NCBI RefSeq assembly: GCF_000425365.1
Contig: NZ_AUDH01000001.1
Coordinates: 372,001 to 436,000 of the forward strand
Source of the DNA: Rubritepida flocculans DSM 14296
Lineage (GTDB): Bacteria > Pseudomonadota > Alphaproteobacteria > Acetobacterales > Acetobacteraceae
Length of the DNA: 64,000 nt
Reading direction: 5' to 3'
Shown: positions 2,358 through 32,827 of the stretch, piece by piece
Numbering within the stretch: position 1 is the stretch's first letter
How the letters are laid out: the number at the start of each line of letters is the position of its first letter
Notes under the pieces: model-generated
What the model was told of the DNA's origin: nothing
Databases searched by the model: none
The model's input: only the letters and a program-made list of their open reading frames with translations
Position numbers and translations under genes: made by a program

Positions 2358-2816
2358 ATGATCCTGGACGCCTTCGCCCCCCTCTATCCCTGGTTCAAGG
2401 CCCTGCACGTGATGGCCGTGCTGGCCTGGATGGCGGGGCTGTTCTACCTGCCGCGCCTGTTCGTCTATCACAGCCAGATCCCGCCCGGGGGCGGGGCCGA
2501 ACATGCGCGATTCGTGCTGATGGAGCGCCGGCTGCTGCGCGCCATCATGAACCCCTCGCTCATCGCCGCCTGGCTCTTCGCCATCCTGGTGCTGATGAGC
2601 CCCCAGGCCGCGGGCTTCTGGGGCGAGGGCTGGTGGCACGCGAAGCTGCTCTGCGTGCTGGGGATGACCTGGTTCCACATGTACCTGGCGAAGCACCGCA
2701 AGGGCTTCGAGCGCGACGAGCGCCGCTTCCCCGAGCGGCACTGGCGCATCATGAACGAGGTGCCGACGCTGCTGATGATCGTCATCGTCACCATGGTGAT
2801 CGTGAAGCCCTTCTAG
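2358..2816 (+). CDS. hemJ: Protoporphyrinogen oxidase HemJ
   Basis: A 152-aa integral membrane protein with about four hydrophobic segments. Conserved residues are YPWFKALHVMAVLAWMAGLFYLPRLFVYH near the N-terminus and WWHAKLLCVLGMTWFHMYL in the middle, whose histidines are the presumed haem or active-site ligands of HemJ. It oxidises protoporphyrinogen IX in haem synthesis. The ATG at 2358 was chosen because MILDAFAPLYPWFKALH matches the family start. hemJ upstream of rho is a common alphaproteobacterial arrangement. Its TAG stop is the first triplet of a dispersed repeat. Confidence 0.9.
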   Translation: MILDAFAPLYPWFKALHVMAVLAWMAGLFYLPRLFVYHSQIPPGGGAEHARFVLMERRLLRAIMNPSLIAAWLFAILVLMSPQAAGFWGEGWWHAKLLCVLGMTWFHMYLAKHRKGFERDERRFPERHWRIMNEVPTLLMIVIVTMVIVKPF

Positions 2817-3090
2817 ACAGAAACTGACACGCGGGCTCTGGCGCACCATGACCATGCCGACCTCGCCACCAGCCAAATCACAGTGCCACAGTTTCATCCA
2901 CGGCGGGTCGGGACCGCCGGTGGGTAACTGATACGGCCGGCGGTCACGCCGGACGTATCGCGCACGCCGGGTTGCCACCACCCAACGCGGCACGCCGCGT
3001 TGGGGCCCGGTGGGCGGCTGCGCGCCTCAACAAGGCCATACCAGCGGCCGCGCCGACTGCTCGGGAGTCGACATCAACGGGCGCTGGGTT
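2814..3090 (+). repeat. Dispersed palindromic repeat, copy R1 (modules A+B, full length)
   Basis: This fills most of the gene-free stretch between hemJ and rho. Module A (about 2814-2910) starts TAGACAGAAACTG, contains GCGGGCTCTGGCGCACCAT and ends GTTTCATCCACGGCGGGTCG. Its outer GAAACTG and CAGTTTC are inverted repeats. Module B (about 2930-3090) has an ATACGG-CGTAT inverted pair, a perfect 10-bp stem (CCCAACGCGG/CCGCGTTGGG at 2981-3004) and a CCAGCGGCCGC arm whose partner has degraded here. A 49-bp stretch (2964-3012) is identical to copy R2. The first TAG is the hemJ stop. About 170 bp of ordinary sequence precede rho. Confidence 0.85.
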
Positions 3091-3258
3091 GACCCTCCGC
3101 GCGGGCGCGAGATTGACGCGCCGCCGCGCGGCCCCTAGTTGTGGGTGGCCGGCGCGCCTCGTGCCCCCGGCCTTCCCTCAGCGCAGACGCGGCCCCGCCG
3201 GCCCGGCCGGACCCCGCCCCACAGCCCGTCGCGCCAACACATGCGGAACCGTCCCGCC

Positions 3259-4533
3259 ATGCATCTCTCCGAACTCAAGGCCAAGTCCCCGCCCGAACTC
3301 CTCGCCTTCGCCGAGGAGCTGCAGATCGAGAACGCCTCCTCCCTGCGCAAGCAGGACATGATGTTCGCCATTCTCAAGACGCTGGCCGACAACGACCAGG
3401 CGATCTACGGCGAAGGTACGCTCGAAATCCTGCCCGACGGCTTCGGCTATCTGCGCAGCCCGCAGGCGAACTTCCTGCCCGGGCCGGACGACATCTACGT
3501 CAGCCCCGCCCAGGTGCGCCGCTTCGGCCTGCGCACCGGCGACACGGTGGAGGGCCAGATCCGCGCGCCGAAGGATGGCGAGCGCTACTTCGCCATGCTC
3601 AAGATCAACTCGGTGAACTTCGAGCCGCCCGAGGCGCTGCGCCACCGCATCAACTTCGACAACCTCACGCCGCTCTATCCCAACCGCCGGCTCAAGATGG
3701 AGAACCCGGAGCTGGAGAGCGTGGCAAAGGGCCCGATGAAGGACATGACGCACCGCGTCATAGACCTGATCGCGCCCATCGGCATGGGCCAGCGCGCGCT
3801 GATCGTCGCCCCCCCGCGCACCGGCAAGACGGTGATGCTGCAGAACATCGCCAAGTCCATCACCGCCAACAACCCCGAGGTCTTCCTCATGGTGCTGCTC
3901 ATCGACGAGCGGCCGGAGGAGGTGACGGACATGGCGCGCACCGTGCGCGGCGAGGTGGTGGCCTCCACCTTCGACGAGCCGGCGACGCGCCATGTGCAGG
4001 TGACGGAGATGGTGCTCGAGAAGGCCAAGCGCCTCGTCGAGCACAAGCGCGACGTGGTGATCCTGCTCGACTCGATCACGCGCCTCGGGCGCGCCTACAA
4101 CTCCGTGGTGCCCTCCTCGGGCAAGGTGCTGACGGGCGGCGTGGACGCGAACGCGCTGCAGCGGCCCAAGCGCTTCTTCGGCGCGGCGCGCAACATCGAG
4201 GAGGGCGGTTCGCTCACCATCATCGCGACCGCCCTAATCGACACGGGCAGCCGCATGGACGAGGTGATCTTCGAGGAGTTCAAGGGCACCGGCAACAGCG
4301 AGATCGTGCTGGACCGCAAGCTCAGCGACAAGCGCACCTTCCCGGCCATCGACATCCTGAAGTCCGGCACGCGGAAGGAGGAGCTGCTGGTGGACCGCGC
4401 CACGCTCTCGAAGATGTGGGTGCTGCGCCGCATCCTGAACCCGATGGGCACCCAGGACGCGATGGAGTTCCTGCTGGACAAGCTGAAGTACAGCAAGACC
4501 AACCAGGATTTCTTCGACGCGATGAACACCTGA
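3259..4533 (+). CDS. rho: Transcription termination factor Rho
   Basis: A 424-aa hexameric RNA-dependent ATPase that ends transcripts. Domains in order: N-terminal helical domain ([21 protein letters not shown]), cold-shock-like RNA-binding domain with [18 protein letters not shown], and the RecA-like motor with Walker [28 protein letters not shown] and the R-loop region [14 protein letters not shown]. Start ATG 3259 (MHLSELKAK) matches the family; an upstream in-frame ATG at 3241 adds only MRNRPA. The gene is bracketed by two copies of the dispersed repeat, and its TGA stop begins copy R2. Confidence 0.98.
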
Positions 4534-4694
4534 TACGGGCGGCGGCCACGCCGGGCGTATCTCGGACGCCGGGTTGCCACCACCCAACGCGGCACGCCGC
4601 GTTGGGGCCCGGTGAGGCGGCGGCGCGCCGAAACACAGGCAAGCCAGCGGCCGCTCCGCCTTCTGCGGCGTCGAGATCAGCGGCCGCTGGCATG
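4531..4694 (+). repeat. Dispersed palindromic repeat, copy R2 (module B)
   Basis: Module B alone, beginning with the rho stop codon TGA in TGATACGGGCGGC. Three inverted repeats follow: ATACG...CGTAT; a perfect 10-bp stem around CCCAACGCGG at 4583-4606; and a perfect 13-bp pair at 4643-4655 and 4679-4691 centred on GCGGCCGC. The 49 bases from 4566 match R1 exactly. It fills most of the 187-bp gap between rho and the convergent binding-protein gene, so it could act in both 3' ends. Confidence 0.88.
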
Positions 4695-4720
4695 AACGCG
4701 GCGGGGCCGCGCGGCGGATT

Positions 4721-6316
4721 CTACGCCCGCCGCACGTTCCAGAACACCGGAATGCCGCCCGGCTGCATCACGCCCGTGATGCTGCGCCGGTGCGCCAGCG
4801 GCTGGAAGAACTGGCCGAGCGGGATGTAGGGCACATCCTCCAGCATCTGCCGCTGCAGATCGGCCGCGATGCGCTGCTGCGCCGCAAGGTCGGGCGCGTC
4901 GAACCAGGCCTCGCGCAGCGCCTCGAGACGCGCGCTGGTCGGCCAGCCGATGAAGCCCTCCCGCCCCTGGCCGCGCAGCATCAGGTGGCCCGCCGGGTTG
5001 AAGTGGTCGAGCCCGCCCCAGTTCGTGCAGAACACGCTCCAGCCGCCCTGCTCGATCGGCTCCTGCCGGGCGCGGCGCTGCACCACCGTGCCCCAGTCCA
5101 TCGCCTGGAAGTCGATGTTCACGCCGAGGCGGCGGAACATGTCGCCCGCCACCTGGGAAAGGGCCGCGAGGCTCGCGATGTCGGTGGTGGCGAGCAGCAC
5201 GATGCGCTCGCCGTTGTAGCCGCTCTCGCGGATCAGCCGGCGCGCCTCGTCCATGTTGTTGGTGAACACCTCGAGCCCGGCATTGGTGGCGAGCGGCGTG
5301 CCGGGGGTGAAGGCGCCCACGCCCGTGCGCCACATCTGCGGGTCGGTCCCCGCCACGGCGGTCATGTAGTCGGCCTGGTTCACCGCGCGCAGCAGCGCCT
5401 GGCGGAAGCGCGGGTTGTTCATCGGCGCGTGCAGGTGATTGGGCCGCATCACCGAGATGGAGCCGAGCGGATCGGGCACCACCACGTTCACGTTGCGGTT
5501 GCGCCGCAGCACGGGCGCGAGGTCGGTGGTCGCGATCTCCCACCAGTCGATCTCGCCGGACTGGATGGCCGCGCCCGCGGTGGCGAAGTCGGGGATGATG
5601 TGCCACTCGACGCGGTCGAAATGCACCACCTTCGGGCCCGCCGTGCCCGAGGGCTGCCCGCCCTGGCGCGGGCGGTAGCCGGCGAAGCGCTCATAGACGA
5701 TGCGACTGCCGGAGACGAGCTCGTCGCGCTTGAAGGTGAAGGGGCCGGAGCCGATCATCTGCTCGGGGCGGATTTGCGTGAAGGCATCCGTCTGCGCGAT
5801 GCGCTCGGGCATGATGAAGCAGACATTGCTGGTGGGCTTGGCCAGCGCGTCCAGCATCAGGCCGAAGGGGCGGGAGAGGCGGATCATGAAGCGCCGGTCA
5901 TCCAGCGCGCGCATCTCCTCGGTCAGCGAGGCGAGGCGCGTGCCCATCGCGTCGCGCCGGGCCCAGCGGGCGATGGAGGCGATGCAGTCGGCCGCGCGCA
6001 CCGGCTCGCCATCGTGGAAGCGCAGCCCCTCGCGCAGCGTGAAGGTCCAGAGGCGGCCGTCGTTCTCGACCGTGTGGCCCTCCACCATCTGCGGCTGGGG
6101 CTTGTACTCGTCATCGAGGCCGTAGAGCGTGTCCCAGACCAGGAAGCCGCTGTTGCGCGTGACGTAGGCGGTGGTCCAGATCGGGTCCATCACCGTCAGG
6201 TTCGCGTGCGGGATGAACTTCAGCGTGCGCGCGGCGGCGGGCTGCGCCAGCGCGGGCGCGGAAACGGCGGCGGCGGCCAGGGCGCCCGTGGCGCCCAGCA
6301 GATCACGGCGGTGCAT
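4721..6316 (-). CDS. Peptide/nickel-type ABC transporter substrate-binding protein (Tat-exported)
   Basis: A 531-aa SBP family 5 protein. It begins MHRRDLLGATGALAAAAVSAPALAQ, a twin-arginine-like signal (RRDLL) with an Ala-X-Ala cleavage site. The mature part has the SBP_bac_5 core: LKFIPHANLTVMDPIWTT, the LREGLRFHDGEPV motif and VWNVR near the end. It should bind oligopeptides or similar ligands in the periplasm for ABC import. No permease or ATPase lies next to it, so it is an orphan here. I chose ATG 6316 over the upstream TTG because the signal peptide starts there and GGGAG lies just upstream. Confidence 0.9.
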   Translation of the reverse strand: MHRRDLLGATGALAAAAVSAPALAQPAAARTLKFIPHANLTVMDPIWTTAYVTRNSGFLVWDTLYGLDDEYKPQPQMVEGHTVENDGRLWTFTLREGLRFHDGEPVRAADCIASIARWARRDAMGTRLASLTEEMRALDDRRFMIRLSRPFGLMLDALAKPTSNVCFIMPERIAQTDAFTQIRPEQMIGSGPFTFKRDELVSGSRIVYERFAGYRPRQGGQPSGTAGPKVVHFDRVEWHIIPDFATAGAAIQSGEIDWWEIATTDLAPVLRRNRNVNVVVPDPLGSISVMRPNHLHAPMNNPRFRQALLRAVNQADYMTAVAGTDPQMWRTGVGAFTPGTPLATNAGLEVFTNNMDEARRLIRESGYNGERIVLLATTDIASLAALSQVAGDMFRRLGVNIDFQAMDWGTVVQRRARQEPIEQGGWSVFCTNWGGLDHFNPAGHLMLRGQGREGFIGWPTSARLEALREAWFDAPDLAAQQRIAADLQRQMLEDVPYIPLGQFFQPLAHRRSITGVMQPGGIPVFWNVRRA

Positions 6317-6391
6317 GTCTCGGTCTCCCAACCCTGCGGGCGGGAGGATGGCGAGGCGCGGGCGGCGCTGTCCAACGAAAAACGGCGTGGC

Positions 6392-7282
6392 CTACAGCAG
6401 CGCCTCGCCGCGCAGCACGGGCACGCAGCCGCCGCCCACGCTGGCGCGGATGCCCGCCTCCTCGCGCCAGGCGCGGGCGAGCAGGCGGCTGGGCCGGCCC
6501 ATCTCCACGCCCTGGGCGATGTCGAACCGCGCCTCCGCCTCGCCCGAGAGATGGAGCTGCAGCCCGGCGAGGGGCGTGGCGGCGCTTCCCGTGGCGGCGT
6601 CCTCCTCCGCGCCGGCGAGCGGGTTGAAGAAGCGCGCGCGCAGCCGGCCCGGCCCGTCGAGGCAGTAGAGGTAGAGGGCGAGGCTGCCCTCCAGCACCGC
6701 GCACTCCGCCACGGCGCGGCGGAAGGCCGCGGCGTCGGGCGCCGCGGCGGCCAGCGCCTCGGGCCGCACCTCGACCAGCACGCGGGGGTTGCCGCCATCC
6801 TGCGCGCGCAGCGGCGCATGGCGCGTGGTGAGGATCGCCTCGGCGGGCAGCGAGGCGGCGGCGGCGATGTGCGGCAGCGAGACGGGCGCGCCCAGCCGCA
6901 GCGGGCCGGGGGCCTCGACCTCCGCGCCCGTCACCTCGCCCGCCGCATCGCGCAGCAGGCGCACCCGCACCACGCCCGCGATCTGCCCGAAGCGCAGCAC
7001 ATCGCCCCGCGCCCGGGCGGCGAGCAGGAAGCCCGCGCCGACATTGGGATGGCCGGCGAAGGGCATCTCCCGCCTGCGGCCGAAGATGCGCAGCCGCGCG
7101 TCCTGCTCCGCCTCCTCGGGCGGGAGGACGAAGACCGTCTCGCTCAGGTTGAACTCGGCGGCCAGCGCCTGCATCTCCGCGTCCGAGAGGCCGCGCGCGT
7201 CGGGGAAGACCGCGAGCGGATTGCCGCCGAAGCGGGTGTGGGTGAACACGTCGCAGGTGGCGAAGGGGAAGCGGCGCGTCAC
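6392..7282 (-). CDS. PhzF family isomerase-like protein
   Basis: A 296-aa protein starting with GTG (MTRRFPFATCDVFTHTRFGGNPLAV). Family hallmarks are the FNLSETVFV strand carrying the Glu of the active site, the FGRRREMPFAGHPNVGAGFLL loop, and EEDAATGSAATPLAGL. PhzF folds resemble diaminopimelate epimerase. PhzF itself isomerises DHHA in phenazine synthesis, but no phenazine genes are nearby, so the substrate is unknown. The GTG overlaps the exonuclease III stop (GTGA), showing translational coupling. Confidence 0.85.
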   Translation of the reverse strand: MTRRFPFATCDVFTHTRFGGNPLAVFPDARGLSDAEMQALAAEFNLSETVFVLPPEEAEQDARLRIFGRRREMPFAGHPNVGAGFLLAARARGDVLRFGQIAGVVRVRLLRDAAGEVTGAEVEAPGPLRLGAPVSLPHIAAAASLPAEAILTTRHAPLRAQDGGNPRVLVEVRPEALAAAAPDAAAFRRAVAECAVLEGSLALYLYCLDGPGRLRARFFNPLAGAEEDAATGSAATPLAGLQLHLSGEAEARFDIAQGVEMGRPSRLLARAWREEAGIRASVGGGCVPVLRGEALL

Positions 7283-8091
7283 AGCGCCAGCTCCACCATC
7301 ACCGGCACATGGTCGCTCGCCTTCTCCCAGCCGCGCGCGGCCTTCAGCACGGCGTGGCGCGCGAGCCTGCCGCGCAGATCGTCGCTGACCCAGATGTGGT
7401 CGAGCCGCCGGCCGCGGTCGGAGGCCGCCCAGTCGCGCGCGCGGTAGCTCCACCAGGAATAGAGCTTCTGCTCCTCCGGCACGAAGTGGCGCACCGCGTC
7501 GTGCCATTCGCCCCGTTCGCGCCAGGTGGTGAGGGCCTCGACCTCGACGGGGGTGTGGCTCACCACGTCCAGCAGTTCCTTGTGCGACCAGACATCGTGC
7601 TCGAGGGGGGCGATGTTCAGGTCGCCCAGCAGCACGCGGCGCGGCGCGGCGGCGCGTCCGGCGGACCAGGCGGTGGCCTCGGCCAGGAAATCGAGCTTGT
7701 GGGCGAATTTGGGGTTGGCCGCGCGGTCCGGCACATCGCCGCCGGCGGGCACGTAGAAGTCGTGCAGCTCGATCGGGCCGCCCGGCGCGTCCAGGCTGAC
7801 CGCGAGGTGCCGGCAATCGCCCTTGCCGCACCAGTCGGGCGTGTCCTCCAGCACGGCGATGGGGCGGCGCGAGAGCACCGCCACGCCGTTGTAGCCCTTC
7901 ATGCCCCGCACCGCGATGTGCGGGAAGCCCAGCGCGGCGATCTCCGCGCGGGGGAAGAGCTCGTCCGGGCACTTGGTTTCCTGCAGACACAGCACATCGG
8001 GCCGCAGCGCCTCGTCCAGCGCGGCGAGCAGCGGCCAGCGCAGCCGCACGGAGTTGATGTTCCAGGTGGCGATGCGCAGCGGGCGGGGCAT
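7279..8091 (-). CDS. xth: Exodeoxyribonuclease III
   Basis: A 270-aa Mg-dependent AP endonuclease/3'-5' exonuclease of the EEP superfamily. Motifs are RIATWNINSVRLR (catalytic Asn), CLQETKCPDELFP (metal-binding Glu), GDLNIAPLEHDVW, YSWWSYRARDWAASDRGRRLDHIWVS and the final KASDHVPVMVEL with Asp-His. It repairs abasic sites. The ATG at 8091 gives MPRPLRIATWN, the usual family start. The downstream PhzF gene overlaps its stop. The exact xthA subtype was not resolved. Confidence 0.94.
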   Translation of the reverse strand: MPRPLRIATWNINSVRLRWPLLAALDEALRPDVLCLQETKCPDELFPRAEIAALGFPHIAVRGMKGYNGVAVLSRRPIAVLEDTPDWCGKGDCRHLAVSLDAPGGPIELHDFYVPAGGDVPDRAANPKFAHKLDFLAEATAWSAGRAAAPRRVLLGDLNIAPLEHDVWSHKELLDVVSHTPVEVEALTTWRERGEWHDAVRHFVPEEQKLYSWWSYRARDWAASDRGRRLDHIWVSDDLRGRLARHAVLKAARGWEKASDHVPVMVELAL

Positions 8092-8142
8092 GGCGGGGGC
8101 CTAGCAGACAGGGCCGCCCGCGCAATGCCCCCGCCGGGGAGA

Positions 8143-8829
8143 TCAGACGATGCGCGTGACGACCGTGCCCACGCCCTCGACATGGCCCTCCAGCAGGTCG
8201 CCGCGCACCACGGCGGCCACATTCTCGGGCGTGCCGGTCATGATGAGGTCGCCGGGCGCGAGTTCCACCAGCTCGGAGAGGTTGGCGATCACCTCCGGCA
8301 CCGACCAGATGAGCTTGGAGAGGTCGCTGCTCTGCCGCACCACGCCGTTCACCTTCAGCTCGATCCGGCCCTTGGAGGGGTCGAAGCCGCCGGCGGGCAT
8401 GATCGCGCCCATGGGGGCGGAGTGGTCGAAGGCCTTGCCCATGTCCCAGGGGCGGCCGGTCTTCTTCGCCTCGCCCTGCAGGTCGCGGCGCGTCATGTCG
8501 AGGCCGGCGCAATAGCCCCAGACATGCTTCAGCGCCTCGGCCACCGGGATGTTGGACCCGCCGACGCCGATGGCGACGACGAGCTCCATCTCGTGGTGCA
8601 GGTCCTTGGTCTTGGTGGGATAGGGCGTGTCGGCGCCGCCCACCACCAGCGCATCGGCGGGCTTGGTGAAGTAGAAGGGGGGCTCGCGCGTCGGGTCGCT
8701 GCCCATCTCGATCGCGTGCTCGGCATAGTTGCGGCCGACGCAGAAGATGCGCCGCACCGGGAACAGCGAATCGGAGCCCTGGACCGGCACGGCGGCCACG
8801 GGCGGCGGGGCGATGACGTAGTTCGGCAC
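8143..8829 (-). CDS. Fumarylacetoacetate hydrolase family protein
   Basis: A 228-aa FAH-domain protein. It has IFCVGRNYAEHAIEMG, the metal site HHEMELVVAIG (His and Glu ligands) and GDLIMTGTPENVAAV, which define the FahD/ureidoglycolate-lyase-like group. Such enzymes hydrolyse or decarboxylate acylpyruvates and related beta-diketo acids; the exact substrate is not readable. Start is GTG (MPNYVIAPP) preceded by GAGGAGGG at ideal spacing. It is about 50 bp upstream of the exonuclease III gene on the same strand. Confidence 0.9.
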   Translation of the reverse strand: MPNYVIAPPPVAAVPVQGSDSLFPVRRIFCVGRNYAEHAIEMGSDPTREPPFYFTKPADALVVGGADTPYPTKTKDLHHEMELVVAIGVGGSNIPVAEALKHVWGYCAGLDMTRRDLQGEAKKTGRPWDMGKAFDHSAPMGAIMPAGGFDPSKGRIELKVNGVVRQSSDLSKLIWSVPEVIANLSELVELAPGDLIMTGTPENVAAVVRGDLLEGHVEGVGTVVTRIV

Positions 8830-9256
8830 GGGGCCCTCCTCGGCAGGTGTCGCGCCGGGCTCTAGCCCAAAGAGCGGAAAGGAGAAATCCGGCCCGCCCG
8901 CGAATCGTCATCTTCGCCCTTGACCCGGCTTCGCGCGGGATGACAAAAACCGGCTCGAAGTGCCGGATTCGCCAGCGAATCGGTCACCACTTGGCTGGAC
9001 GCCTTGCGCCAGGGAGAACTCCCCCAACGCAAAAGCGCCCGACCAGGGGGGTGGTCGGGCGCCCGTGCAGTCTGACTTCCGATCGGAGTGGTCGGGCGAG
9101 CCGATAGGGGATGTCGGCGCGTCCACCGGCGGCTTTCACCCCGCCAGCAGAGGCACTATAGCGCGGCCCGCGCCGGGCGCAAAGCCGAATCCGCAGCCCG
9201 CCCGCGGCGGCGCGGCCGACGCAACAGCCTGTTGCGGCGGCGGAAAGCTCCCGCCG
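8830..9256. other. 427-bp intergenic region with no gene; small palindromes and one terminator
   Basis: No credible gene in either strand. A GTCATC...GATGAC pair brackets 8909-8944, resembling the REP-like units common in alphaproteobacteria. ATTCGC-CA-GCGAAT forms a small palindrome near 8967-8980. The strongest element is the terminator at 9031-9062, listed separately. The 72-residue minus-strand frame at 8908-9126 has no recognisable features and no good ribosome binding site. Confidence 0.5.
9031..9062 (-). terminator. Rho-independent terminator of the glutamine amidotransferase gene
   Basis: A perfect 11-bp stem, GCGCCCGACCA (9035-9045) and its complement (9052-9062), with a 6-nt loop. 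On the minus strand it is followed by TTTT. It lies about 195 bases after the stop at 9257, the only minus-strand gene reading toward it. Confidence 0.8.
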
Positions 9257-10030: not shown

Positions 10031-10063
10031 TCCCGCAACAAACCGCCCGTCTGCGGCGCTTTC

Positions 10064-10092
10064 AAGGCGGAAAACGCGGCCCGCGCCGCCTT
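10064..10092. terminator. Possible hairpin terminator between LolA and amidotransferase genes
   Basis: AAGGCGG and CCGCCTT pair around a GC-rich inner palindrome, with TTTTT on the plus-strand side and only GAAAG on the minus-strand side. It sits immediately after the LolA-like stop. Because the T-run faces the strand without genes, its role as a terminator for the minus-strand genes is weak. Confidence 0.3.
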
Positions 10093-10094
10093 TT

Positions 10095-10724: not shown

Positions 10725-10763
10725 GCCCCCCTTGTGGGGTGCGCCCGGGCGCGGGGGAAGGGG

Positions 10764-12365: not shown

Positions 12366-12493
12366 TAATACGGGCGGCATGACATGCCGACCGTATCGCG
12401 CGCAGGGTTGGTGTGGCGGCTGCGCGCCAAAACAAAGGCATACCAGCGGCCGCACCGGCCCCTCGGGAGTCGACATCAGCGGCCGCTGGTATA
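12366..12493 (+). repeat. Dispersed palindromic repeat, copy R3 (module B)
   Basis: It starts TAATACGGGCGGCATG and forms an ATACGG...CCGTAT inverted pair with an inner GGCAT/ATGCC. It lacks the 10-bp middle hairpin of R1 and R2. It then has CGCGCCAAAACAAAGGC and a perfect 14-bp inverted repeat (12440-12453 with 12479-12492) containing GCGGCCGC. CTCGGGAGTCGACATCA in the loop is identical to R1. The far arm encodes the last residues (YTSGR) and stop codon of the convergent arsJ gene. Confidence 0.88.
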
Positions 12494-13795
12494 AGACCGG
12501 ATGTCCGCCCTGCGCGCGGGGAAGGCCAGGGAGATCGTCCAGCAGCCGAGCAGCATCGCTGCCGCGCCCAGCAGGCAGGCCGCGAGCCCGCCCCAGAGAT
12601 AGAGCAGCCCCGAGAGCAGCGTGCCCAGAAAGCGCCCCGCCGCATTGGCCGCGTAGTAGAAGCCCACATCCTCCGCCGCCTTCTCGCTGCCCGCATAGGC
12701 GAGCACCAGGTAGGAATGGACCGAGGAGTTCACCGCGAAGAGCACCCCGAAGGCGCAGAGCCCGAGCGGCACGTAGAGATCGGGCCGCGGCGCGCCCGCC
12801 AGCATCAGCCCCGCCAGCGCCAGCGGCAGCAGCGCGAGCGCGAGCGACCAGGCGCGCGCCGCGGGAACCTCGCTCGCCAGCCCGTCCGGGCTGCGGCGCA
12901 CCAGCGCCGGGGCGCTGGCCTGGATCACGCCATAGCCGATGGTCCAGACGGCGAGGAAACCGCCGACCATGGCGAAGCTCCAGCCATTCGCGTAAAGGAA
13001 AACGGGCAGCCCCACCACGAACCACACGTCGCGCGCGCCGAAGAGGAAGACGCGCGCGGCGGCGAGCAGGTTCACGCCGCGGTTCTTGGCGAAGAGCTCC
13101 CGCGCCGAGCGCGAGGCGCGCGCCTTGCCCATCATCGGCGGCAGCGAGAGCAGCACGCCCGCCAGCACCGCGGCGAGCGCCGCCGCCATGAGCCAGAGCG
13201 CGGCGCGGAAGCCGAAAGCTTCCAGCAGCAGCCCGCCCAGGAAGAAGCCCAGCCCCTTCATCGCGTTCTTGCTGCCCGTGAAGAAGGCGACCCAGCGGAA
13301 CAGCCGGCCCGAGGCCTCGCCCCGCGCGCCGTCGCCGGAGGGCGAGGCCCGCGGGCGCGAATCGGCCGCGCCGCCGAAGGCGGCATCGTGCGTCAGCTTG
13401 ATGGCGGATTTGCTCGCGGTCTTGGTCAGATCCTTCGCCACGCCGCAAATGCCCTGGGCCGCCACCACCCAGGCCACCGACAGCGCCGCCCCCCAGCCCG
13501 GCGAGACGGCCGAGAGCAGCAGGAAGCCGATGATCTGCGTGGACAGCCCCACCGCCAGCATCCGCGCGATGCCGAAGCGCGTGGCGAGCCAGCCGCCGAT
13601 GAGGTTCGCCGCGATCCCCGCCGCCTCGTAGAGCAGGAAGAGGAAGGCCAGGGTGAAGGGCGAATAGCCCAGCCGGAAGAAGTGCAGCAGCACCAGCATG
13701 CGCAGCGCGCCGTCGGTCAGCGTGAAGCCCCAGTAGGCGAAGGTCACGATGAGGTAGTTGCGCGTGCCGGTGGCGGCGGCGGTGCTGCTGCTCAT
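12476..13795 (-). CDS. arsJ: ArsJ-type MFS exporter of 1-arseno-3-phosphoglycerate
   Basis: A 439-aa major facilitator with about 12 hydrophobic segments. The N-terminal NYLIVTFAYWGFTLTDGALRMLVLLHF is characteristic of ArsJ, and it is encoded 4 bp after a GAPDH gene in an arsenic operon. In the known pathway GAPDH makes unstable 1-arseno-3-phosphoglycerate from arsenate and ArsJ exports it. The ATG at 13795 (MSSSTAAATGTRNYLIV) is preferred over upstream non-ATG codons. Its C-terminal YTSGR and TGA stop are contributed by repeat R3, so the native end may have been replaced. Confidence 0.9.
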   Translation of the reverse strand: MSSSTAAATGTRNYLIVTFAYWGFTLTDGALRMLVLLHFFRLGYSPFTLAFLFLLYEAAGIAANLIGGWLATRFGIARMLAVGLSTQIIGFLLLSAVSPGWGAALSVAWVVAAQGICGVAKDLTKTASKSAIKLTHDAAFGGAADSRPRASPSGDGARGEASGRLFRWVAFFTGSKNAMKGLGFFLGGLLLEAFGFRAALWLMAAALAAVLAGVLLSLPPMMGKARASRSARELFAKNRGVNLLAAARVFLFGARDVWFVVGLPVFLYANGWSFAMVGGFLAVWTIGYGVIQASAPALVRRSPDGLASEVPAARAWSLALALLPLALAGLMLAGAPRPDLYVPLGLCAFGVLFAVNSSVHSYLVLAYAGSEKAAEDVGFYYAANAAGRFLGTLLSGLLYLWGGLAACLLGAAAMLLGCWTISLAFPARRADIRSYTSGR

Positions 13796-13799
13796 GGCC

Positions 13800-23545: not shown

Positions 23546-23571
23546 GGCGGGCCCTCCGATGATATGCACCA

Positions 23572-23600: not shown

Positions 23601-23608
23601 CCCGCACC

Positions 23609-25941: not shown

Positions 25942-25947
25942 GGCCGC

Positions 25948-26469
25948 TCAGCGCCGCGCGGGCGCGGGGCACTCGCGCGAGATGGCGTCATAGGCGGCGG
26001 AGAAGCCGGCCAGCGGGAAGACATCGCTCGACTGGCCGCGGTTGTTGGGCCCGGGGCCGCGCGAGACGGCCTCGCGCCCGCCGCGCAGCGCCTGCACCGC
26101 GGCGCGCCCGTCGCGGGCGAAGGCGGTGTCCTGAGCGGTGAAGAAGGGCAGCTCGCTCTGGCCGACGATGAGTCGCGCCTCCGCCCCGCGCGGGAAGCTG
26201 TAGCCCGCGCGCACCGCCACCTGGTCCCGCGCCTGTGGGCGGTGGGTGACGAGCAGCATCACGTTCTGCGCCTGGCGCCCGGGCACCCCGTCTATGCTGC
26301 GGGCGCGGGCGAAGGCGTAGCAGATCTTCTGGCCCTGCTCGGTGTGGGTGGCCGCGGTCCAGGACTGGAACTCGCCCAGGCGCACGGGGGCGCCGCGCTG
26401 CTGGGCCTCGGCCCCGGGCGGGAGCATCAGCGGCAGGAGCAGCGCGGCCAGGATCAGGGGGCGTCGCAT
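25948..26469 (-). CDS. Invasion-associated locus B (IalB)-like secreted protein
   Basis: A 173-aa protein with signal [23 protein letters not shown]. The mature domain has the IalB pattern: [12 protein letters not shown]...[31 protein letters not shown] and the C-terminal [20 protein letters not shown], with two cysteines that could pair. IalB-like proteins are common in free-living alphaproteobacteria, so the name does not imply virulence. It stops 7 bp before the rlmN start and is probably co-transcribed with it. Confidence 0.85.
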
Positions 26470-26539
26470 GGCGCCGGTGCATAGGCCCGCGCGCCCCGCG
26501 GAGCAATGCGGGAAACGCGCAGGCTGGGGCGAGCGGGCG

Positions 26540-26863
26540 TCAGCCCTCCTCGTCGCGGTCGCCCTCGACCTCGATCTCCTCGCCGATCGCCTCGTCCTCG
26601 TCCTCGAGCTCGTCGGCGTCCTCGAGCGCGGCGTCGGCCTCCACGTCCTCGAGCTCCACGTCGTCGGCGTCCACCTCCGCGGCGGCGCCGGCGCGCTTCT
26701 TGAGCTTCTCGTCCGCCGCGGCGGCGGCGCGGCGCAGGCGGGGCTGCTCGGCCGGCTGCTCGGTGCCGCATTTGGGGCAGACCGCGGGCTGGCGCGTCAG
26801 GTCGTAGAATTTCGCGCCGCAGGAGACGCAGATGCGCTTCAGTCCGAGTTCGGGCTTGGCCAT
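26540..26863 (-). CDS. FYDLN acid zinc-ribbon protein (TIGR02300 family)
   Basis: A 107-aa protein. The N-terminal [29 protein letters not shown] is the CxxC...FYDL...CxxC ribbon that names the family. It is followed by a basic patch and a long, almost wholly acidic tail (about residues 70-107). Function is unknown, but the family is restricted largely to Alphaproteobacteria and often sits next to aroA and cmk, as here. It diverges from aroA with 84 bp between starts. Confidence 0.92.
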
Positions 26864-26947
26864 GGAGCCGTCATTCCTCTGCGCGGCCACGGGGCCGCGG
26901 GCGGCGCGCATTGCCACGGGCCGTGCATCGGTGTCAAACCCGCGGCC

Positions 26948-28297
26948 ATGTCGCATGATGCCGCGCCCCAGCCGCTCCGCGCCCAGGCCGCCCCCGCGCC
27001 GCTCTCCGGCCGGCTGCGCGTGCCGGGGGACAAGTCCATCAGCCACCGCGCGCTGATGTTCGGCGCGCTCGCCGTCGGCACCACCCGCATCGAGGGGCTG
27101 CTGGAGGGCGAGGACGTGCTGCGCACCGCCGCCGCCATGCGCCTGCTCGGCGCGACGGTGGAGCGGCTGGGCGAGGGGTCCTGGCGCGTGGCCGGGCGCG
27201 GCATCGGCGGGCTGACCGAGCCCTCGGACGTGCTGGACATGGGCAATTCCGGCACCGCCGCGCGGCTGATCTGCGGGCTGCTGGCCGGCCACCCCCTCTT
27301 CGCGGTGATGACGGGCGACGCCTCGCTGCGCCGCCGGCCGATGCAGCGGGTGACGGAGCCGCTCTCCGCCACCGGCGCGCGCTTCGCCACCCGCGCGGGC
27401 GGGCGGCTGCCCCTCGCGGTGGAGGGCGCGCGCGACCCGCTGCCGCTCGACTACCGCCTGCCCGTCGCCTCCGCCCAGGTCAAAAGCGCCTGCCTGCTGG
27501 CCGGGCTCTGCGCGCCCGGGATCACCCGCGTCGTCGAGCCGGAGGCGACGCGCGACCACAGCGAGAACATGCTGCGCCATTTCGGCGCGGAACTGCGCGT
27601 CGCCGCCGAGGGGGCGGGGCGCGTCATCGAGCTCACCGGCCAGCCGGAGCTGCGCGCCGCCCCGGTGATGGTGCCGGGCGATCCCTCCTCGGCCGCCTTC
27701 TTCGCCGTCGCCGCGCTGGTGGTGCCGGGCTCGCGCCTCGTCATCGAGAATGTGGGGCTCAATCCCCTCCGCACCGGGCTGTTCGAGGCGCTGCGCGAGA
27801 TGGGCGCGGCGCTCACCGTCTCCAACGCCCGCACCGAGGGGGGGGAGCCGGTGGGCGATCTCGTGCTGCGGCAGGGGGAGCTGCGCGGCGTGGACCTGCC
27901 CGCCGCCCGCGCGCCGGCGATGATCGACGAATACCCGGTGCTTGCCGTGGCCGCCGCCTTCGCCCGCGGGGTGAGCCGCTTCCGCGGCCTCGCCGAGCTG
28001 CGGGTGAAGGAGAGCGACCGGCTGGCCGGCACCGCCGCCCTGCTCGCCGCCAATGGCGTGAAGGTGGAGGTGGAGGGCGACGACCTGATCGTGCACGGCA
28101 CGGGCGGGGCCGTGCCCGGCGGCGGCCTGGTGGCGACGCAGATGGACCATCGCCTGGCCATGTCCGCGCTGGTGATGGGCCTCGCCGCCCGCGCCCCGGT
28201 GACGGTGGACGACGGCGCCTTCATCGCCACCAGCTTCCCGGGCTTCGTCGCGCTGGTGAACCGCGCGGCCGGTGGCGAGGCGATCGGCCCGGCATGA
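26948..28297 (+). CDS. aroA: 3-phosphoshikimate 1-carboxyvinyltransferase (EPSP synthase, class II type)
   Basis: A 449-aa enzyme joining PEP and shikimate-3-phosphate in aromatic amino-acid synthesis. Conserved blocks are [73 protein letters not shown] and LRVKESDRL. Overall pattern follows the CP4-like class II enzymes, but Gly102 stands where CP4 has its glyphosate-excluding Ala. ATG 26948 ([10 protein letters not shown]) gives the family length. The stop overlaps the cmk start (ATGA). Confidence 0.96.
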
Positions 28298-28947
28298 GCG
28301 CGCCCCTCGTCATCGCCGTGGACGGGCCGGCGGCGGCCGGCAAGGGCACGCTGGCGCGCCGCCTCGCCGCCCATCTCGGCCTGCCCTACCTGGATACGGG
28401 GCTGCTCTACCGCGCCACGGGCCGGCGCGTGCTGGACGCGGGCGGCGACCCGGCCGACCCCGCCGCCGCCGAGGCCGCCGCCCGGGCCCTGGCGCCCGAG
28501 GATCTCGCCCGCCCCGACCTGCGCGCCGAGGAGGCGGCCGCGGCGGCCAGCAAGGTGGCCGCCATCCCGGCCGTGCGGGCCGCGCTGCTCGACTTCCAGC
28601 GCCGCTTCGGCGCGGCGCGCGGCGCGGTGCTGGACGGGCGGGACATCGGCACGGTGGTCTTTCCCGACGCCCCCGTGAAGCTCTTCGTCACTGCGAGCCC
28701 CGAGGTGCGCGCCGCCCGCCGCCATGCGGAGCTGCTGGCCCGGGGCGTGCCGGCGCGGCTCGAGGAGGTGGCGGCCGAGATGGCCGAGCGCGACGCCCGG
28801 GATTCCGCGCGCGGCGTGGCCCCGCTGCGCCCGGCCGAGGACGCGCTGATCCTCGACACCAGCGCGCTGGACGCGGAGGCCGCCTTCGCCGCCGCGCTCG
28901 CGCTGGTGGAATCGGCGCGCGCGCGCGGGGATTCCACGGGAAGCTGA
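28294..28947 (+). CDS. cmk: Cytidylate kinase
   Basis: A 217-aa nucleoside monophosphate kinase phosphorylating CMP and dCMP. P-loop [17 protein letters not shown], then [34 protein letters not shown] and [26 protein letters not shown], all diagnostic of bacterial CMP kinase. It sits in the conserved aroA-cmk-rpsA order, with an ATGA overlap with aroA. Confidence 0.97.
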
Positions 28948-29182
28948 CGCTTTTCCCTTGACCTCCCGCCCGAGTCGGCGGATGAAGCGCACGCCATGCG
29001 CTGGCATGGTCGGCAAAGGGGCGCGCCGCAAGGGCCCCATCCACCAGGCCGCCCCTCCTTCCTCGGCAAGAGGCCGATCGCGATGGGCGCGCAAGCCGTG
29101 ACGGCCCCGTGCGGGCGCCGTGGCGCAGGACCCGACCACCGGGGCCGCCCGCCCCGACGCTGACCCAGGAACCACCCTCTAC

Positions 29183-30901
29183 ATGGCCAATGCCAACGCC
29201 CCCGCCACGCGCGCGGGCACCGAAGATTTCGCCGCCCTGCTCGACGAGATGCTGGGCGCCAACACCGGCTTCGCCGGCTCCGTCGTCACCGGCAAGGTGA
29301 TCCGCATCGACGATGACGTCGCGGTGGTGGATGTGGGCCTCAAGAGCGAGGGCCGCGTGCCGCTGAAGGAGTTCGCCCCGCCCGGCCAGAAGCCGGAGGT
29401 GAAGGTGGGCGACGTGTTCGACCTCTTCGTCGAGCGCTACGAGGACAAGGACGGCTCCATCGTCCTCTCGCGCGAGAAGGCGCGGCGCGAGGAGGCCTGG
29501 ACGAATCTCGAGAAGGCCTTCGCCGCGGGCCAGCGCGTGAACGGCGTGATCTTCGGCCGGGTGAAGGGCGGCTTCACCGTGGATCTCGGCGGGGCGGTGG
29601 CCTTCCTGCCCGGCTCCCAGGTGGACATCCGCCCGGTGCGGGACGTGGGGCCGCTGATGGGCCAGTCCCAGCCCTTCCAGATCCTCAAGATGGACCGCGC
29701 GCGGGGCAACATCGTCGTCAGCCGCCGCGCGGTGCTGGAGGAGACGCGCGCCGAGCAGCGCGCCGAGCTGGTGCAGGGCCTCAAGGAAGGCATGGTGCTG
29801 GACGGCGTGGTGAAGAACATCACCGACTACGGCGCCTTCGTGGACCTCGGCGGCGTGGACGGGCTGCTGCACGTCACCGACATCGCCTGGCGGCGCATCA
29901 ACCACCCCTCCGAGGCGCTGACCATCGGCCAGCAGGTGAAGGTGCAGGTGATCCGCTTCAACCAGGACACCCAGCGCATCAGCCTCGGCATGAAGCAGCT
30001 CATGTCCGACCCGTGGGACGGCGTGGCGCTGAAGTATCCGGTGGGCGCGCGCTTCTCGGGCCGCGTCACCAACATCACCGACTACGGCGCCTTCGTGGAG
30101 CTGGAGCCGGGGGTGGAGGGCCTCGTCCACGTCTCCGAGATGTCCTGGACGAAGAAGAACGTGCACCCGGGCAAGATCGTCTCCACCTCGGAGCAGGTGG
30201 ACGTGATGATCCTGGATGTGGACGAGCCGAAGCGGCGCATCTCGCTCGGCCTGAAGCAGGCGCAGGGCAACCCGTGGGAGCTGTTCCTGCAGGCGCACCC
30301 GCTGGGCAGCGTGGTCGAGGGCGAAATTCGCAACATCACCGAGTTCGGCCTGTTCATCGGCGTCGGCCCCGACATCGACGGCATGGTGCACCTCTCCGAC
30401 CTTTCCTGGGACGAGCCGGGCGAGGTGGCCATCCAGCGCTACAAGAAGGGCGATGTGGTGAAGGCCAAGGTGCTGGACGTGGATGTGGAGAAGGAGCGCA
30501 TCTCCCTCGGCATCAAGCAGCTCGAGGCCGACCCCGCCGCGGAGGTGCTGGACCGCGTGCGCAAGGGCGACATCGTGACCTGCACCGTCACCAAGATCGA
30601 GCCCAACGGCATCGAGGTGAAGGTGGAGGAGGTGCTGACCGGCTTCATCCGCCGCGCCGAGCTGGCGCGCGACCGCCAGGACCAGCGCCCCGAGCGCTTC
30701 GCCGTGGGCGAGAAGGTGGACGCGAAGGTGACGGCGGTGGACCGCGCCGCGCGCCGCCTCTCGCTCACCATCAAGGGCAAGGAGATCGAGGAGGAGCGCG
30801 AGGCCGTGCGCGAGTTCGGCAGCTCCGACAGCGGGGCCTCGCTGGGCGACATCCTGGGCGCGGCCATCCGCCGCCGCCGCGAGATGGCCGGCGAGGAGTG
30901 A
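29183..30901 (+). CDS. rpsA: 30S ribosomal protein S1
   Basis: A 572-aa protein with six S1 RNA-binding repeats. Examples are GKVIRIDDDVAVVDVGLKSEG, GRVKGGFTVDLGG, GVVKNITDYGAFVDLGGVDGLLHVTD and GRVTNITDYGAFVELEPGVEGLVHVSE. S1 docks mRNAs on the 30S subunit. ATG 29183 (MANANAPATRAGTEDFAALLDEML) is chosen because upstream codons read as leader. The 235-bp gap after cmk probably holds its own promoter, though I could not define it. A textbook terminator follows. Confidence 0.97.
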   Translation: MANANAPATRAGTEDFAALLDEMLGANTGFAGSVVTGKVIRIDDDVAVVDVGLKSEGRVPLKEFAPPGQKPEVKVGDVFDLFVERYEDKDGSIVLSREKARREEAWTNLEKAFAAGQRVNGVIFGRVKGGFTVDLGGAVAFLPGSQVDIRPVRDVGPLMGQSQPFQILKMDRARGNIVVSRRAVLEETRAEQRAELVQGLKEGMVLDGVVKNITDYGAFVDLGGVDGLLHVTDIAWRRINHPSEALTIGQQVKVQVIRFNQDTQRISLGMKQLMSDPWDGVALKYPVGARFSGRVTNITDYGAFVELEPGVEGLVHVSEMSWTKKNVHPGKIVSTSEQVDVMILDVDEPKRRISLGLKQAQGNPWELFLQAHPLGSVVEGEIRNITEFGLFIGVGPDIDGMVHLSDLSWDEPGEVAIQRYKKGDVVKAKVLDVDVEKERISLGIKQLEADPAAEVLDRVRKGDIVTCTVTKIEPNGIEVKVEEVLTGFIRRAELARDRQDQRPERFAVGEKVDAKVTAVDRAARRLSLTIKGKEIEEEREAVREFGSSDSGASLGDILGAAIRRRREMAGEE

Positions 30902-30933
30902 TCCGCGGCCCCTCGGGGCCCGGTTCTTCGGAG

Positions 30934-30962
30934 GGGGCGCGCCGCGGGGCGCGCCCCTTTTT
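30934..30962 (+). terminator. Rho-independent terminator of rpsA
   Basis: A 10-bp perfect stem, GGGGCGCGCC (30934-30943) and GGCGCGCCCC (30948-30957), with a 4-nt GCGG loop, followed directly by TTTTT. It lies 33 bases after the rpsA stop. Confidence 0.9.
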
Positions 30963-31126
30963 CGTTGCGGCCGGGGCTGCGGGATATGGGCGAAGCGCGT
31001 CTCAATTCGCGGGATGCCGGCGCTCCGCATGCGCCGCTGGCGCGGGGAATCCCGGTTTGCGGGACCGTCTCGGCTGGCGAGCCGCCTGGCCGATCCTTTC
31101 CACAGGGTTTCTCGCCGCCGGGGGCG

Positions 31127-31141
31127 TTAACGGTTCTTTAT
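31127..31141 (+). promoter_or_regulatory. CtrA-box-like site in the ctrA promoter region
   Basis: TTAA, seven bases, TTAT, one mismatch from the CtrA recognition sequence TTAA-N7-TTAA. It lies in a sharply AT-rich stretch (about 31127-31180) about 110 bases upstream of the ctrA ATG, the only such stretch in this part of the window. CtrA autoregulation is known in Caulobacter; here it is inferred. Confidence 0.5.
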
Positions 31142-31213
31142 TGACGAATATCTTTTTAAATACACAAAAATCGGCAAATCGCGCTTGGCCGGGACACGCG
31201 CAGGTGGTATCTC

Positions 31214-31236
31214 CTCCACACGCAAAACGTGTGGAG
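31214..31236 (+). promoter_or_regulatory. Hairpin enclosing the ribosome binding site of ctrA
   Basis: A perfect 9-bp stem, CTCCACACG (31214-31222) and CGTGTGGAG (31228-31236), with loop CAAAA. The last four bases of the 3' arm, GGAG, are the only good Shine-Dalgarno sequence for the ATG at 31245, at 8-nt spacing. Folding would therefore hide the ribosome site. It is not followed by a T-run, so a terminator role is unlikely. Confidence 0.75.
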
Positions 31237-31244
31237 ACCGAGCA

Positions 31245-31976
31245 ATGCGCATCCTTCTGGTGGAAGACGATCGCTCCGCGGCCCGCGGCATCTCCTTCCA
31301 GCTCCAGCAGCACCGGATGGTGGTGGACGTGGCCGATTGCGGCGCCGAGGCGCTGGAGCTCGCCCGCCTCTACGACTATGACGCCGCCATCGTGGACCTG
31401 ATGCTGCCGGACATGGAGGGCTACGAGGTCGTCTCCAAGTTCCGCGCCGCCCGCATCGAGGCGCCGGTGCTCATGCTCTCCGCCAATGGCCGCACCCAGG
31501 CCAAGGTGCGCGGCCTCTCCGTCGGCGCCGACGACTATCTCGCCAAGCCCTTCGAGCCCGATGAGCTGGTGGCCCGGCTGCAGGCGATGATCCGCCGCTC
31601 CAAGGGGCTCAGCCAGCCGCGCATCCAGCTCGGCCCCCTCTCGCTCGACCTCGGCGCGAAGGAGGTGACGGTGCAGGGCCGGCCGGTGCATCTCACCACC
31701 AAGGAATACGCCATCCTCGAGCTGCTGCTGATGCGCCGGGGCACGGTGCTCTCGAAGGAGAACTTCCTCGACCACCTCTATGGCGGCATGGACGAGCCGG
31801 ACGCCAAGATCATCGACGTCTTCGTCTGCAAGCTGCGCAAGAAGCTGCAGCAGGCGGGCGCGGCCAATGTGATCGGCACGGTCTGGGGCCGCGGCTACAT
31901 CGTGCGCGACGCCTCGGGCCCCGCCATGCCCGCCGCCTTCCGCACCCCGCTGCCGGAGTCCCGGCCCGCCGCCTGA
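31245..31976 (+). CDS. ctrA: Cell-cycle response regulator CtrA
   Basis: A 243-aa OmpR-type response regulator. The receiver starts MRILLVEDDRS with Asp51 as phospho-acceptor in AAIVDLMLPD and Lys in GADDYLAKPF. The DNA-binding domain contains HLTTKEYAILELL, NFLDHLYGGMDEPDAKIIDVF and TVWGRGYIVRD, near-diagnostic for CtrA. The C-terminus ends in Ala-Ala, as needed for ClpXP turnover in Caulobacter. CtrA controls division, motility and replication genes. The leader has a CtrA-like box and a ribosome-site hairpin. Confidence 0.93.
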   Translation: MRILLVEDDRSAARGISFQLQQHRMVVDVADCGAEALELARLYDYDAAIVDLMLPDMEGYEVVSKFRAARIEAPVLMLSANGRTQAKVRGLSVGADDYLAKPFEPDELVARLQAMIRRSKGLSQPRIQLGPLSLDLGAKEVTVQGRPVHLTTKEYAILELLLMRRGTVLSKENFLDHLYGGMDEPDAKIIDVFVCKLRKKLQQAGAANVIGTVWGRGYIVRDASGPAMPAAFRTPLPESRPAA

Positions 31977-32020
31977 GACGGGCGCCCATCGACGCCTTGC
32001 TTCGACGGGACCTTTCGCCG

Positions 32021-32060
32021 CGGCGGCGCGCCAAAACAAGGGCATAGCAGCGGCCGCTGG
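32021..32060 (+). repeat. Dispersed palindromic repeat, copy R4 (short remnant of module B)
   Basis: It reads GGCGGCGCGCCAAAACAAGGGCATAGCAGCGGCCGCTGG in essence, matching the 3' half of copies R2 and R3. The two GCGGCCGC arms seen in other copies are fused into a single palindrome CAGCGGCCGCTG, as if the loop had been deleted. It lies 45 bases after the ctrA stop. Surrounding sequence 31977-32187 holds no gene. Confidence 0.7.
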
Positions 32061-32187
32061 GTGGATCGCCCGGCCCATGCTGCGCCGCACGGCCACGCTG
32101 CGCCGCAACATGGGAAGTGGTTGCAACCCCCGCGTGCCGGGGCCCAAGCTGGCGGCGCTGTCATCCGCCGGGAAGGAGGGCTTCGAC

Positions 32188-32625
32188 ATGCTCATCGGTC
32201 AGGTGCTCAAGGCCAAGGGAACCCAGGTCATCTCCGTCCGGGCGGGGGATGGGATCGCCTCCATCACGCGCACCCTGGCGCAGCACCGCATCGGCGCGGT
32301 GCTGGTGGTGGAGGGGGATGGCACGGTGCTCGGCATCGTCAGCGAGCGCGACATCGTCCGCGCCCTGGCCGGGATGGGCGAGGCGGTGATGCGCATGACC
32401 GCCGGCCAGCTCATGACGCGGGTGCTCTTCACCGTCACCCCCGCCAGCCTGGTGCAGGACGCGCTGCAGCTCATGACCGACCGCCGCGTGCGCCACCTGC
32501 CGGTGCTCAACCCCGACGGCACTCTGGCCGGCATGGTCTCCATCGGCGACCTGGTGAAGGCCCGCATCGCCGAGGCCGAACAGGAGGCCGAGGAGCTGAA
32601 GGCCTACGTCGCCACGGCCGGCTAG
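32188..32625 (+). CDS. CBS-domain pair protein
   Basis: A 145-aa protein made of two CBS domains: VISVRAGDGIASITRTLAQHRIGAVLVVEGDGTVLGIVSERDIVRAL and the repeat ending VRHLPVLNPDGTLAGMVSIGDLVKARI. CBS pairs bind adenine nucleotides or S-adenosylmethionine and act as energy sensors. ATG 32188 is preceded by GGAAGGAGGG at good spacing; the longer upstream frame runs through repeat-derived sequence. The TAG stop is the first triplet of repeat R5. No enzyme domain is attached and no partner gene is obvious. Confidence 0.9.
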   Translation: MLIGQVLKAKGTQVISVRAGDGIASITRTLAQHRIGAVLVVEGDGTVLGIVSERDIVRALAGMGEAVMRMTAGQLMTRVLFTVTPASLVQDALQLMTDRRVRHLPVLNPDGTLAGMVSIGDLVKARIAEAEQEAEELKAYVATAG

Positions 32626-32827
32626 ACAGAAACTCCCTCGGCTCGTGGTTCGAGGGAGCATGCGAAGCCGGGGTTTGTGATGTGGACGGCGAGGTGCCGT
32701 GCCTGCTGATAGGCGGGCTCTGGCGCACCATCGGCATGCCGGCAAACCGCAGTGCCAGAGTTTCATCCACGGCGGGTCGCGACGGCCACTGGGGTACCAA
32801 TACGGGCGGCAGCCACGCCGGACCTAC
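32623..32827 (+). repeat. Dispersed palindromic repeat, copy R5 (module A with insert, module B truncated)
   Basis: It begins TAGACAGAAACT, identical to R1, the TAG being the CBS gene stop. A 73-bp insert follows (32635-32707) with an 8-bp hairpin CTCCCTCG/CGAGGGAG. Module A resumes at GATAGGCGGGCTCTGGCGCACC and ends TTTCATCCACGGCGGGTCG, 29 of 30 bases as in R1. Module B is cut short at about 32827, where the stop of the convergent hydrolase gene lies. Confidence 0.85.

What the first reader, a model, noticed from the sequence alone, without database searches (positions are those of the whole stretch)
2814..32827. A composite palindromic repeat family with at least five copies in the window
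Copies R1 (2814-3090), R2 (4531-4694), R3 (12366-12493), R4 (32021-32060) and R5 (32623-32827) share two modules. Module A starts TAGACAGAAACT and ends TTTCATCCACGGCGGGTCG. Module B has ATACGGGCGGC, a middle 10-bp stem in two copies, CGCGCCAAAACAAAGGC and paired arms around GCGGCCGC. R1 and R2 share 49 identical bases; R1 and R3 share CTCGGGAGTCGACATCA. No family I know of matches. The copies are far too alike and structured to be chance, and encode nothing evident. They may be a non-autonomous mobile element, or RNA-level 3'-end elements.
Basis: seen in the sequence. Interest (0 to 1): 0.82.

Follow-up and report, generated by a model that had tools for sequence, protein, structure and literature searches.

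The report
Nested mobile repeats at stop codons
The repeats are two kinds of small mobile DNA nested in each other: a hairpin-rich element that sits exactly on gene stop codons, and a shrunken relative of an RNA-guided jumping gene that lands on the edge of the first one, so that the host gene keeps a stop signal.

Summary
I count 17 complete short copies of module A, 9 left and 10 right contig-end pieces of a longer relative, and dozens of module B copies or fragments. Module A is a 115-bp internally deleted derivative of a resident IS110-family element: 11 bp of its right end plus about 104 bp of its left end. That left end encodes a bridge-RNA-like guide. In 7 of 7 related elements with different targets, the 7-nt guide recurs once, at the element's own edge; 0 of 42 swapped pairs match. 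Here the guide reads CTGATAC, and 23 of 26 left-end junctions are CTGATAC. Module B is a 123-161 bp, MITE-like hairpin element. Its left triplet is the in-frame stop codon of the upstream gene in 21 of 23 B-only copies, and the same triplet recurs at its right edge in 20 of 25 copies. A congener's related family shows TGA/TGA or TCA/TCA (Fisher p=0.003). Module A lands on B's (C)TGATAC edge and turns the host stop TGA into TAG. B's helper transposase is unknown.

The parts
2815..2929 (+). R1, module A: short IS110 derivative, 113 bp plus one copy of the CT core. Host hemJ stop is now TAG at 2814-2816.
2929..3092 (+). R1, module B: TGA (2929-2931), element 2932-3089, TGA (3090-3092).
4531..4695 (+). 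R2, module B: TGA (4531-4533, stop codon of rho), element 4534-4692, TGA (4693-4695).
12366..12494 (+). R3, module B, short form (123 bp) with TAA on both sides. Not at a stop codon of an upstream gene.
32020..32060 (+). R4, fragment of module B (right part, without the left hairpins).
32623..32799 (+). R5: another IS110 deletion derivative, about 86 bp of right end (32623-32708) joined to left end; its first three bases TAG end the CBS-domain ORF 32077-32625.
32800..32827 (+). remnant of the left edge of module B after R5.
3259..4533 (+). rho; its TGA is the left edge of R2.
2322..2816 (+). hemJ-like ORF (name recalled; open frame as listed, true start not determined); its stop is supplied by module A.

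Best explanation
Two mobile elements are nested. (1) Module B is a non-autonomous, MITE-like element of 123-161 bp made of hairpins. It inserts at a triplet, usually TGA, and leaves that triplet on both sides. Most copies sit on the stop codon of a gene, so the gene stays whole. Shown: edges, repeated triplets, stop frames. Inferred: that a DDE transposase with 3-bp TNA duplications moved it. (2) A resident IS110-family element carries a bridge-RNA-like guide in its long left end. The guide holds CTGATAC, which matches the (C)TGATAC edge of B. The element inserts there around a CT core, and the host stop TGA becomes TAG. Shown: element ends, guide-target and guide-donor matches, junctions. Inferred: expression of the RNA and the reaction itself. 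(3) Module A is an internal deletion of that element that kept 11 bp of right end and about 104 bp of left end, without transposase gene or donor guide, and spread as a unit. Shown: one shared deletion junction at many loci. Inferred: mobilisation in trans by the full element.
For: Nine contig ends carry the left side (transposase start, leader, module A core, then CTGATAC in most). The 12-mer CTAGACAGAAAC occurs 27 times: 16 short A, R5, and 10 near contig ends that lead into the right end; in L148 and L152 this reads as the transposase C-terminus ending in TAG at the core. Relatives of this C-terminus are annotated IS110 family transposase (52.6% identity, H9 and H10). Guide and own target agree over 7 nt in 7 of 7 elements, 1 of 5040 pairings reaches the sum. 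Without choosing edges by eye, the guide 7-mer recurs in the 250 nt upstream (185 nt in L018) in 7 of 7 own and 0 of 42 swapped cases. Right ends match a second guide in 4 of 6 elements looked at. 23 of 26 left-end junctions are CTGATAC; L018 and L026 share only those 7 nt with B. 17 of 17 short copies share one deletion junction. B: 21 of 23 left triplets are in-frame stops; 20 of 25 copies have equal triplets, among them TAA/TAA (R3) and CGA/CGA (L045); G018 pairs TGA/TGA 5, TCA/TCA 8, TGA/TCA 1. hemJ-rho gap 443 bp here, 163-164 bp in G003, G004, G010.
Against: No full-length IS110 copy is assembled; it is inferred from contig ends, and the middle of its transposase was not seen. Pfam did not recognise the 42-residue N-terminal fragment as IS110 and scored the C-terminal fragment below its cut-off (18 against 21.3 bits, E 0.0039), although the same region of C18 reached the cut-off. 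Five of 25 B copies have unequal triplets (one because A sits there), and 4 of 18 G018 copies have other pairs. CGA is not TNA. Six of 16 congeners have longer hemJ-rho gaps (589-698 bp). No transcript or transposition data. No helper for B was found.
Confidence: 0.85

Rival explanations
1. Short A copies did not spread as a unit: each arose on the spot by deletion within a full-length IS110 copy.
For: The deletion joins sites with a few bases in common, and R5 is an independent deletion.
Against: 17 of 17 short copies share the exact junction and TGACA where 9 of 9 longer copies have TGATA.
Confidence: 0.1
2. Module B is a REP/BIME-type palindrome family spread by a RAYT-type tyrosine transposase.
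For: Short, hairpin-rich, extragenic, mosaic, and a target for IS110 elements, as REPs are (PMC11208160, passages).
Against: No Y1 transposase match in the genome, control positive in 5 of 14 genomes; 123-161 bp with a repeated triplet at both edges; no GTAG tag seen.
Confidence: 0.08
3. Module B is not mobile but a 3'-end RNA element (terminator or stabiliser) that evolved at stop codons, and the repeated TGA is part of it.
For: Very stable fold, position right after stops, other hairpin-rich sequences after rho in several congeners.
Against: The right triplet follows the left one when it is not TGA: TAA/TAA, CGA/CGA, and TCA/TCA in G018; many alike copies at unrelated genes in one genome; in G018 either end can face the gene.
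Confidence: 0.1

Closest known systems
IS110-group insertion sequences with bridge RNA / seekRNA (IS621, ISEc21; PMC11208160 and PMC11187229, passages read)
   Same: DEDD-type transposase relatives, long non-coding region upstream of the gene, two guides matching target and donor, core dinucleotide, insertion in palindromic repeats, no duplication of target bases beyond the core.
   Different: Here the target is the stop-codon edge of another mobile element, the host stop is rewritten, and a 115-bp derivative without transposase has multiplied.
Laboratory mini IS of ISEc21 (ends of 29 and 16 bp moved with machinery supplied outside the mini element; PMC11187229, passages)
   Same: Only the ends are needed on the moving DNA.
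   Different: Natural, with a right end of only 11 bp; movement not shown.
MITEs, and the IS1031 group of the IS5 family (TNA target, 3-bp repeats; PMC12016507, passage)
   Same: Module B: no gene, hairpins, repeated triplet mostly of the TNA type.
   Different: Helper unknown; exact placement on stop codons; terminal inverted repeats weak in this genome, clearer in G018.
REP/BIME palindromes (PMC3733652, passages)
   Same: Extragenic palindromes, mosaic, used as IS110 targets.
   Different: No Y1 transposase found, longer, repeated triplets.

Membership tests
IS110 family (parent of module A) | DEDD transposase with IS110-type domains | tested here: inconclusive
   Only terminal fragments visible. 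C18 fragment at the PF02371 cut-off, printed C-terminal fragment below it, N-terminal fragment no IS110 hit; relatives annotated IS110 family transposase.
IS110 family (parent of module A) | long non-coding region upstream of the transposase gene with guides for target and donor | tested here: met
   target guide 7 of 7 own, 0 of 42 swapped; donor guide 4 of 6
IS110 family (parent of module A) | core dinucleotide on both sides, no longer target duplication, specific target | tested here: met
   CT on both sides; 23 of 26 junctions CTGATAC
IS110 family (parent of module A) | circular intermediate and expressed RNA | not testable with these tools
   needs RNA and DNA from cells
Non-autonomous derivative of IS110 (module A) | both ends kept, gene lost, multiplied as a unit | tested here: met
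   17 of 17 with one junction at many loci (three are one tandem array, two share a downstream stretch)
Non-autonomous derivative of IS110 (module A) | mobilised in trans | not testable with these tools
   experiment needed
MITE (module B) | small, no gene, many alike copies | tested here: met
MITE (module B) | target duplication | tested here: met
   20 of 25 in G000; G018 Fisher p = 0.003 on 14 of 18 copies
MITE (module B) | terminal inverted repeats shared with an autonomous element | tested here: inconclusive
   ends resemble each other by eye; no autonomous partner was looked for beyond PF01797
IS1031 group as helper of B | TNA target with 3-bp duplication | tested here: inconclusive
   TGA, TAA, TCA pairs fit, CGA/CGA and CTA do not
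REP with RAYT | Y1 tyrosine transposase in the genome | tested here: not met
   no match, control positive in 5 of 14

The most novel reading that the evidence does not exclude
A two-step system of harmless landing: a miniature element addressed to stop codons (not merely surviving there) spreads with a duplicated stop codon, and an RNA-guided IS110 element, together with a natural 115-bp mini-IS110 that borrows its parent's recombinase and bridge RNA, has programmed itself onto that edge and rewrites host stops from TGA to TAG.
Probability: 0.4. Interest if true: 0.72.

Novelty: new variant of a known kind. Interest (0 to 1): 0.58.

Why it matters
It looks like a natural, multicopy IS110 element without transposase, which would show what minimal ends bridge-RNA recombination tolerates outside the laboratory, and it gives seven natural guide-target pairs on related left ends. 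It also shows repeats placed exactly on stop codons, which would explain how they multiply in a gene-dense genome and change which stop codon genes use. My ten paper searches (listings, with passages read of six papers) turned up no description of a natural transposase-less IS110 element or of a stop-codon MITE; the library lacks most subscription papers.

Tried and rejected
Rfam scan of the window: one tRNA only. R1 against plasmids: no match. R1 against 41 relatives: matches in 3 (own, G018, G020), in G018 and G020 only to module B parts. A 19-nt stretch of the left end in 385 genomes of the class: only the own genome; a 21-nt version of it in genome contigs gave one MAG contig (L156), which became one of the guide-target pairs, and in viral contigs one contig that is C34 of this genome. 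Longer left end in the genus: 1 of 21, the own genome. REP/RAYT reading rejected. Module A as a structured palindrome rejected. An RNA consensus structure of six left ends was computed and is not relied on. Rows dropped: Methylobacterium L171, no guide motif found; L168 and L173 have broken transposase frames and no readable right end but were kept for the target guide; six of 23 B-only copies had no recognisable right end (L053, L057, L058, L059, L060, L079) and are not in the triplet count; L203 and L205 of 20 G018 loci had no fitting right end. For some searches I set edges by eye; one search repeats the guide test without that.

Full report
Check of the observation. The five copies are present as described. 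With R1 as query, the own genome (3.83 Mb, 74 contigs, unnamed) gives 50 matches, a lower bound because 40 of 274 candidates were scored. In the stretches I fetched, the copies split into two independent modules.

Module A. Copies aligned with their flanks have a constant 5' edge TAGACAGAAACTGACA and a 3' edge GGGTAA (GGCTAA in one) followed by CT. Nine copies near contig ends have a longer left side that runs into the start of a transposase read in the opposite direction, MEVLHPRCAGLDVHKDSVTAAVR; in L011 an IS5-like end interrupts it. The 12-mer CTAGACAGAAAC occurs 27 times: 16 short copies, R5, and 10 near contig ends that lead into the right end of the element. In the two that I translated this is a transposase C-terminus ending GVSV and TAG, the TAG being completed by the core. 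I read the two kinds of contig end as left and right ends of one IS110-family element of about ten copies that the assembly could not pass; no complete copy is assembled. The short module A is 11 bp of that right end joined to about 104 bp of that left end; 17 of 17 copies share the junction. R5 is a different deletion with about 86 bp of right end.

Family. Relatives of the C-terminus on plasmids include genes annotated IS110 family transposase (52.6% identity). Pfam is weak on the fragments: PF02371 at 18 bits against a cut-off of 21.3 for the fragment from C30, no IS110 match for the 42-residue N-terminus, and just at the cut-off for the C18 fragment in the genome search.

Guides. In the left ends of this element and six relatives (L156, L168, L169, L170, L172, L173) a variable stretch lies before T[TG]GGACCC. 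It equals the element's own edge over exactly 7 nt (5 nt and the core AG, transposase orientation) in 7 of 7; of 5040 pairings only the true one reaches the sum. Those edges were set by eye, so I repeated the test without edges: the guide 7-mer recurs once in the 250 nt upstream (185 nt for L018) in 7 of 7 own cases, at 104-139 nt, and in 0 of 42 swapped cases. For this genome the test used L018, which lies outside module B. A second variable stretch matches the right end in four elements (this genome, L169, L170, L172); in L168 and L173 no such right end was found, and L156 ends before it. Target and donor guides in the non-coding end are the mark of bridge RNAs (PMC11208160, PMC11187229, passages). 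In short A the target guide reads TGACA instead of TGATA and the donor guide is gone, so it should depend on the parent. Mini ISEc21 elements with 29- and 16-bp ends moved with machinery supplied outside them (PMC11187229, passages); here the right end is only 11 bp.

Where A lands. Of 26 left-end junctions (9 longer, 17 short, three of these one tandem array), 23 read CTGATAC, 2 CTCATAC and 1 CTGACAC. Most continue as the left edge of module B; L018 and L026 share only the 7 nt. The base before TAG is C except in L064. Where the upstream sequence is coding the host stop is now TAG: by open frame (at least 150 codons) and third-position GC I count 12 of 18 (17 short and R5) and 6 of 10 right ends of the longer element. 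The hemJ stop is TGA in 15 of 16 congeners in which it was seen, TAG in one.

Module B. In 21 of 23 B-only copies the left triplet is TGA or TAA, in frame with at least 155 open codons and with highest GC at the third position; the exceptions are L045 and R3. The 23 are those with a recognisable left edge in my stretches, not all B matches. The same triplet stands at the right edge in 18 of 23 copies and, with L045 (CGA/CGA) and L061 (TGA/TGA) read, in 20 of 25; the five unequal ones are TGA/TGC, TAA/TGG, TGA/CGA, TGA/TAA and one overwritten by A. Because TGA might belong to B, the related family of congener G018 is the better test: TGA/TGA 5, TCA/TCA 8, TGA/TCA 1, other pairs 4 of 18 (Fisher p = 0.003 on the 14), and 12 of 18 abut an in-frame stop, 2 on the left and 10 on the right side (one of them with 144 open codons and one a TAG). 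A 3-bp TNA repeat is the habit of the IS1031 group (PMC12016507, passage); CGA/CGA does not fit that. Drawing TNA sites at random from the stop plus 100 bp downstream would give the stop in 37% of cases; 21 of 23 then has p about 7e-8. That null is crude and does not separate targeting from survival. No Y1 transposase match exists in the genome. B folds strongly.

Empty sites. The hemJ-rho gap is 443 bp here and 163-164 bp in G003, G004 and G010; A (115) plus B with one triplet (161) is 276 bp, which leaves 167. Ten of 16 congeners have gaps of 145-236 bp, six have 589-698 bp. At rho, 15 of 18 congeners stop with TGA, 2 with TAG and 1 with TAA, mostly followed by other sequence; G018 has its own B-like element there.

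Verdict. The finding is confirmed and largely explained as a mini-IS110 nested in a stop-codon MITE. Shown: edges, parentage of A, guide covariation, repeated triplets, stop frames.

Noticed in passing
L079, 3010 (genome C20:53509, contig end): The left end is joined to an unrelated flank exactly at CTGATACG, the guide copy inside it; the guide may itself have served as a target, or this is a contig-end artefact.
   Followed up: no
L011, 1-190 (genome C20 start): An IS5-like end (DEEWSFFEPFVVSASPLGGR read by eye) sits at the CTAG inside the IS110 left end.
   Followed up: no
L176-L184, after the rho stop (congeners G016, G010, G003, G004, G020, G011, G007): Other hairpin-rich sequences with CCCTCAGGCGCCGGGCG-like starts stand near the rho stop in several congeners; they may be further families of the same habit.
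   Followed up: no
genome C37:18408-19439, C22:3792-4640, C1:190546-191400: Three further DEDD transposase genes of other IS110 types.
   Followed up: no
L057, 408-815 (genome C13): Three tandem copies of short A with a 140-bp period.
   Followed up: partly
L157: An IMG/VR viral contig (24,040 bp) has the length and start of contig C34 of this bacterial genome.
   Followed up: partly
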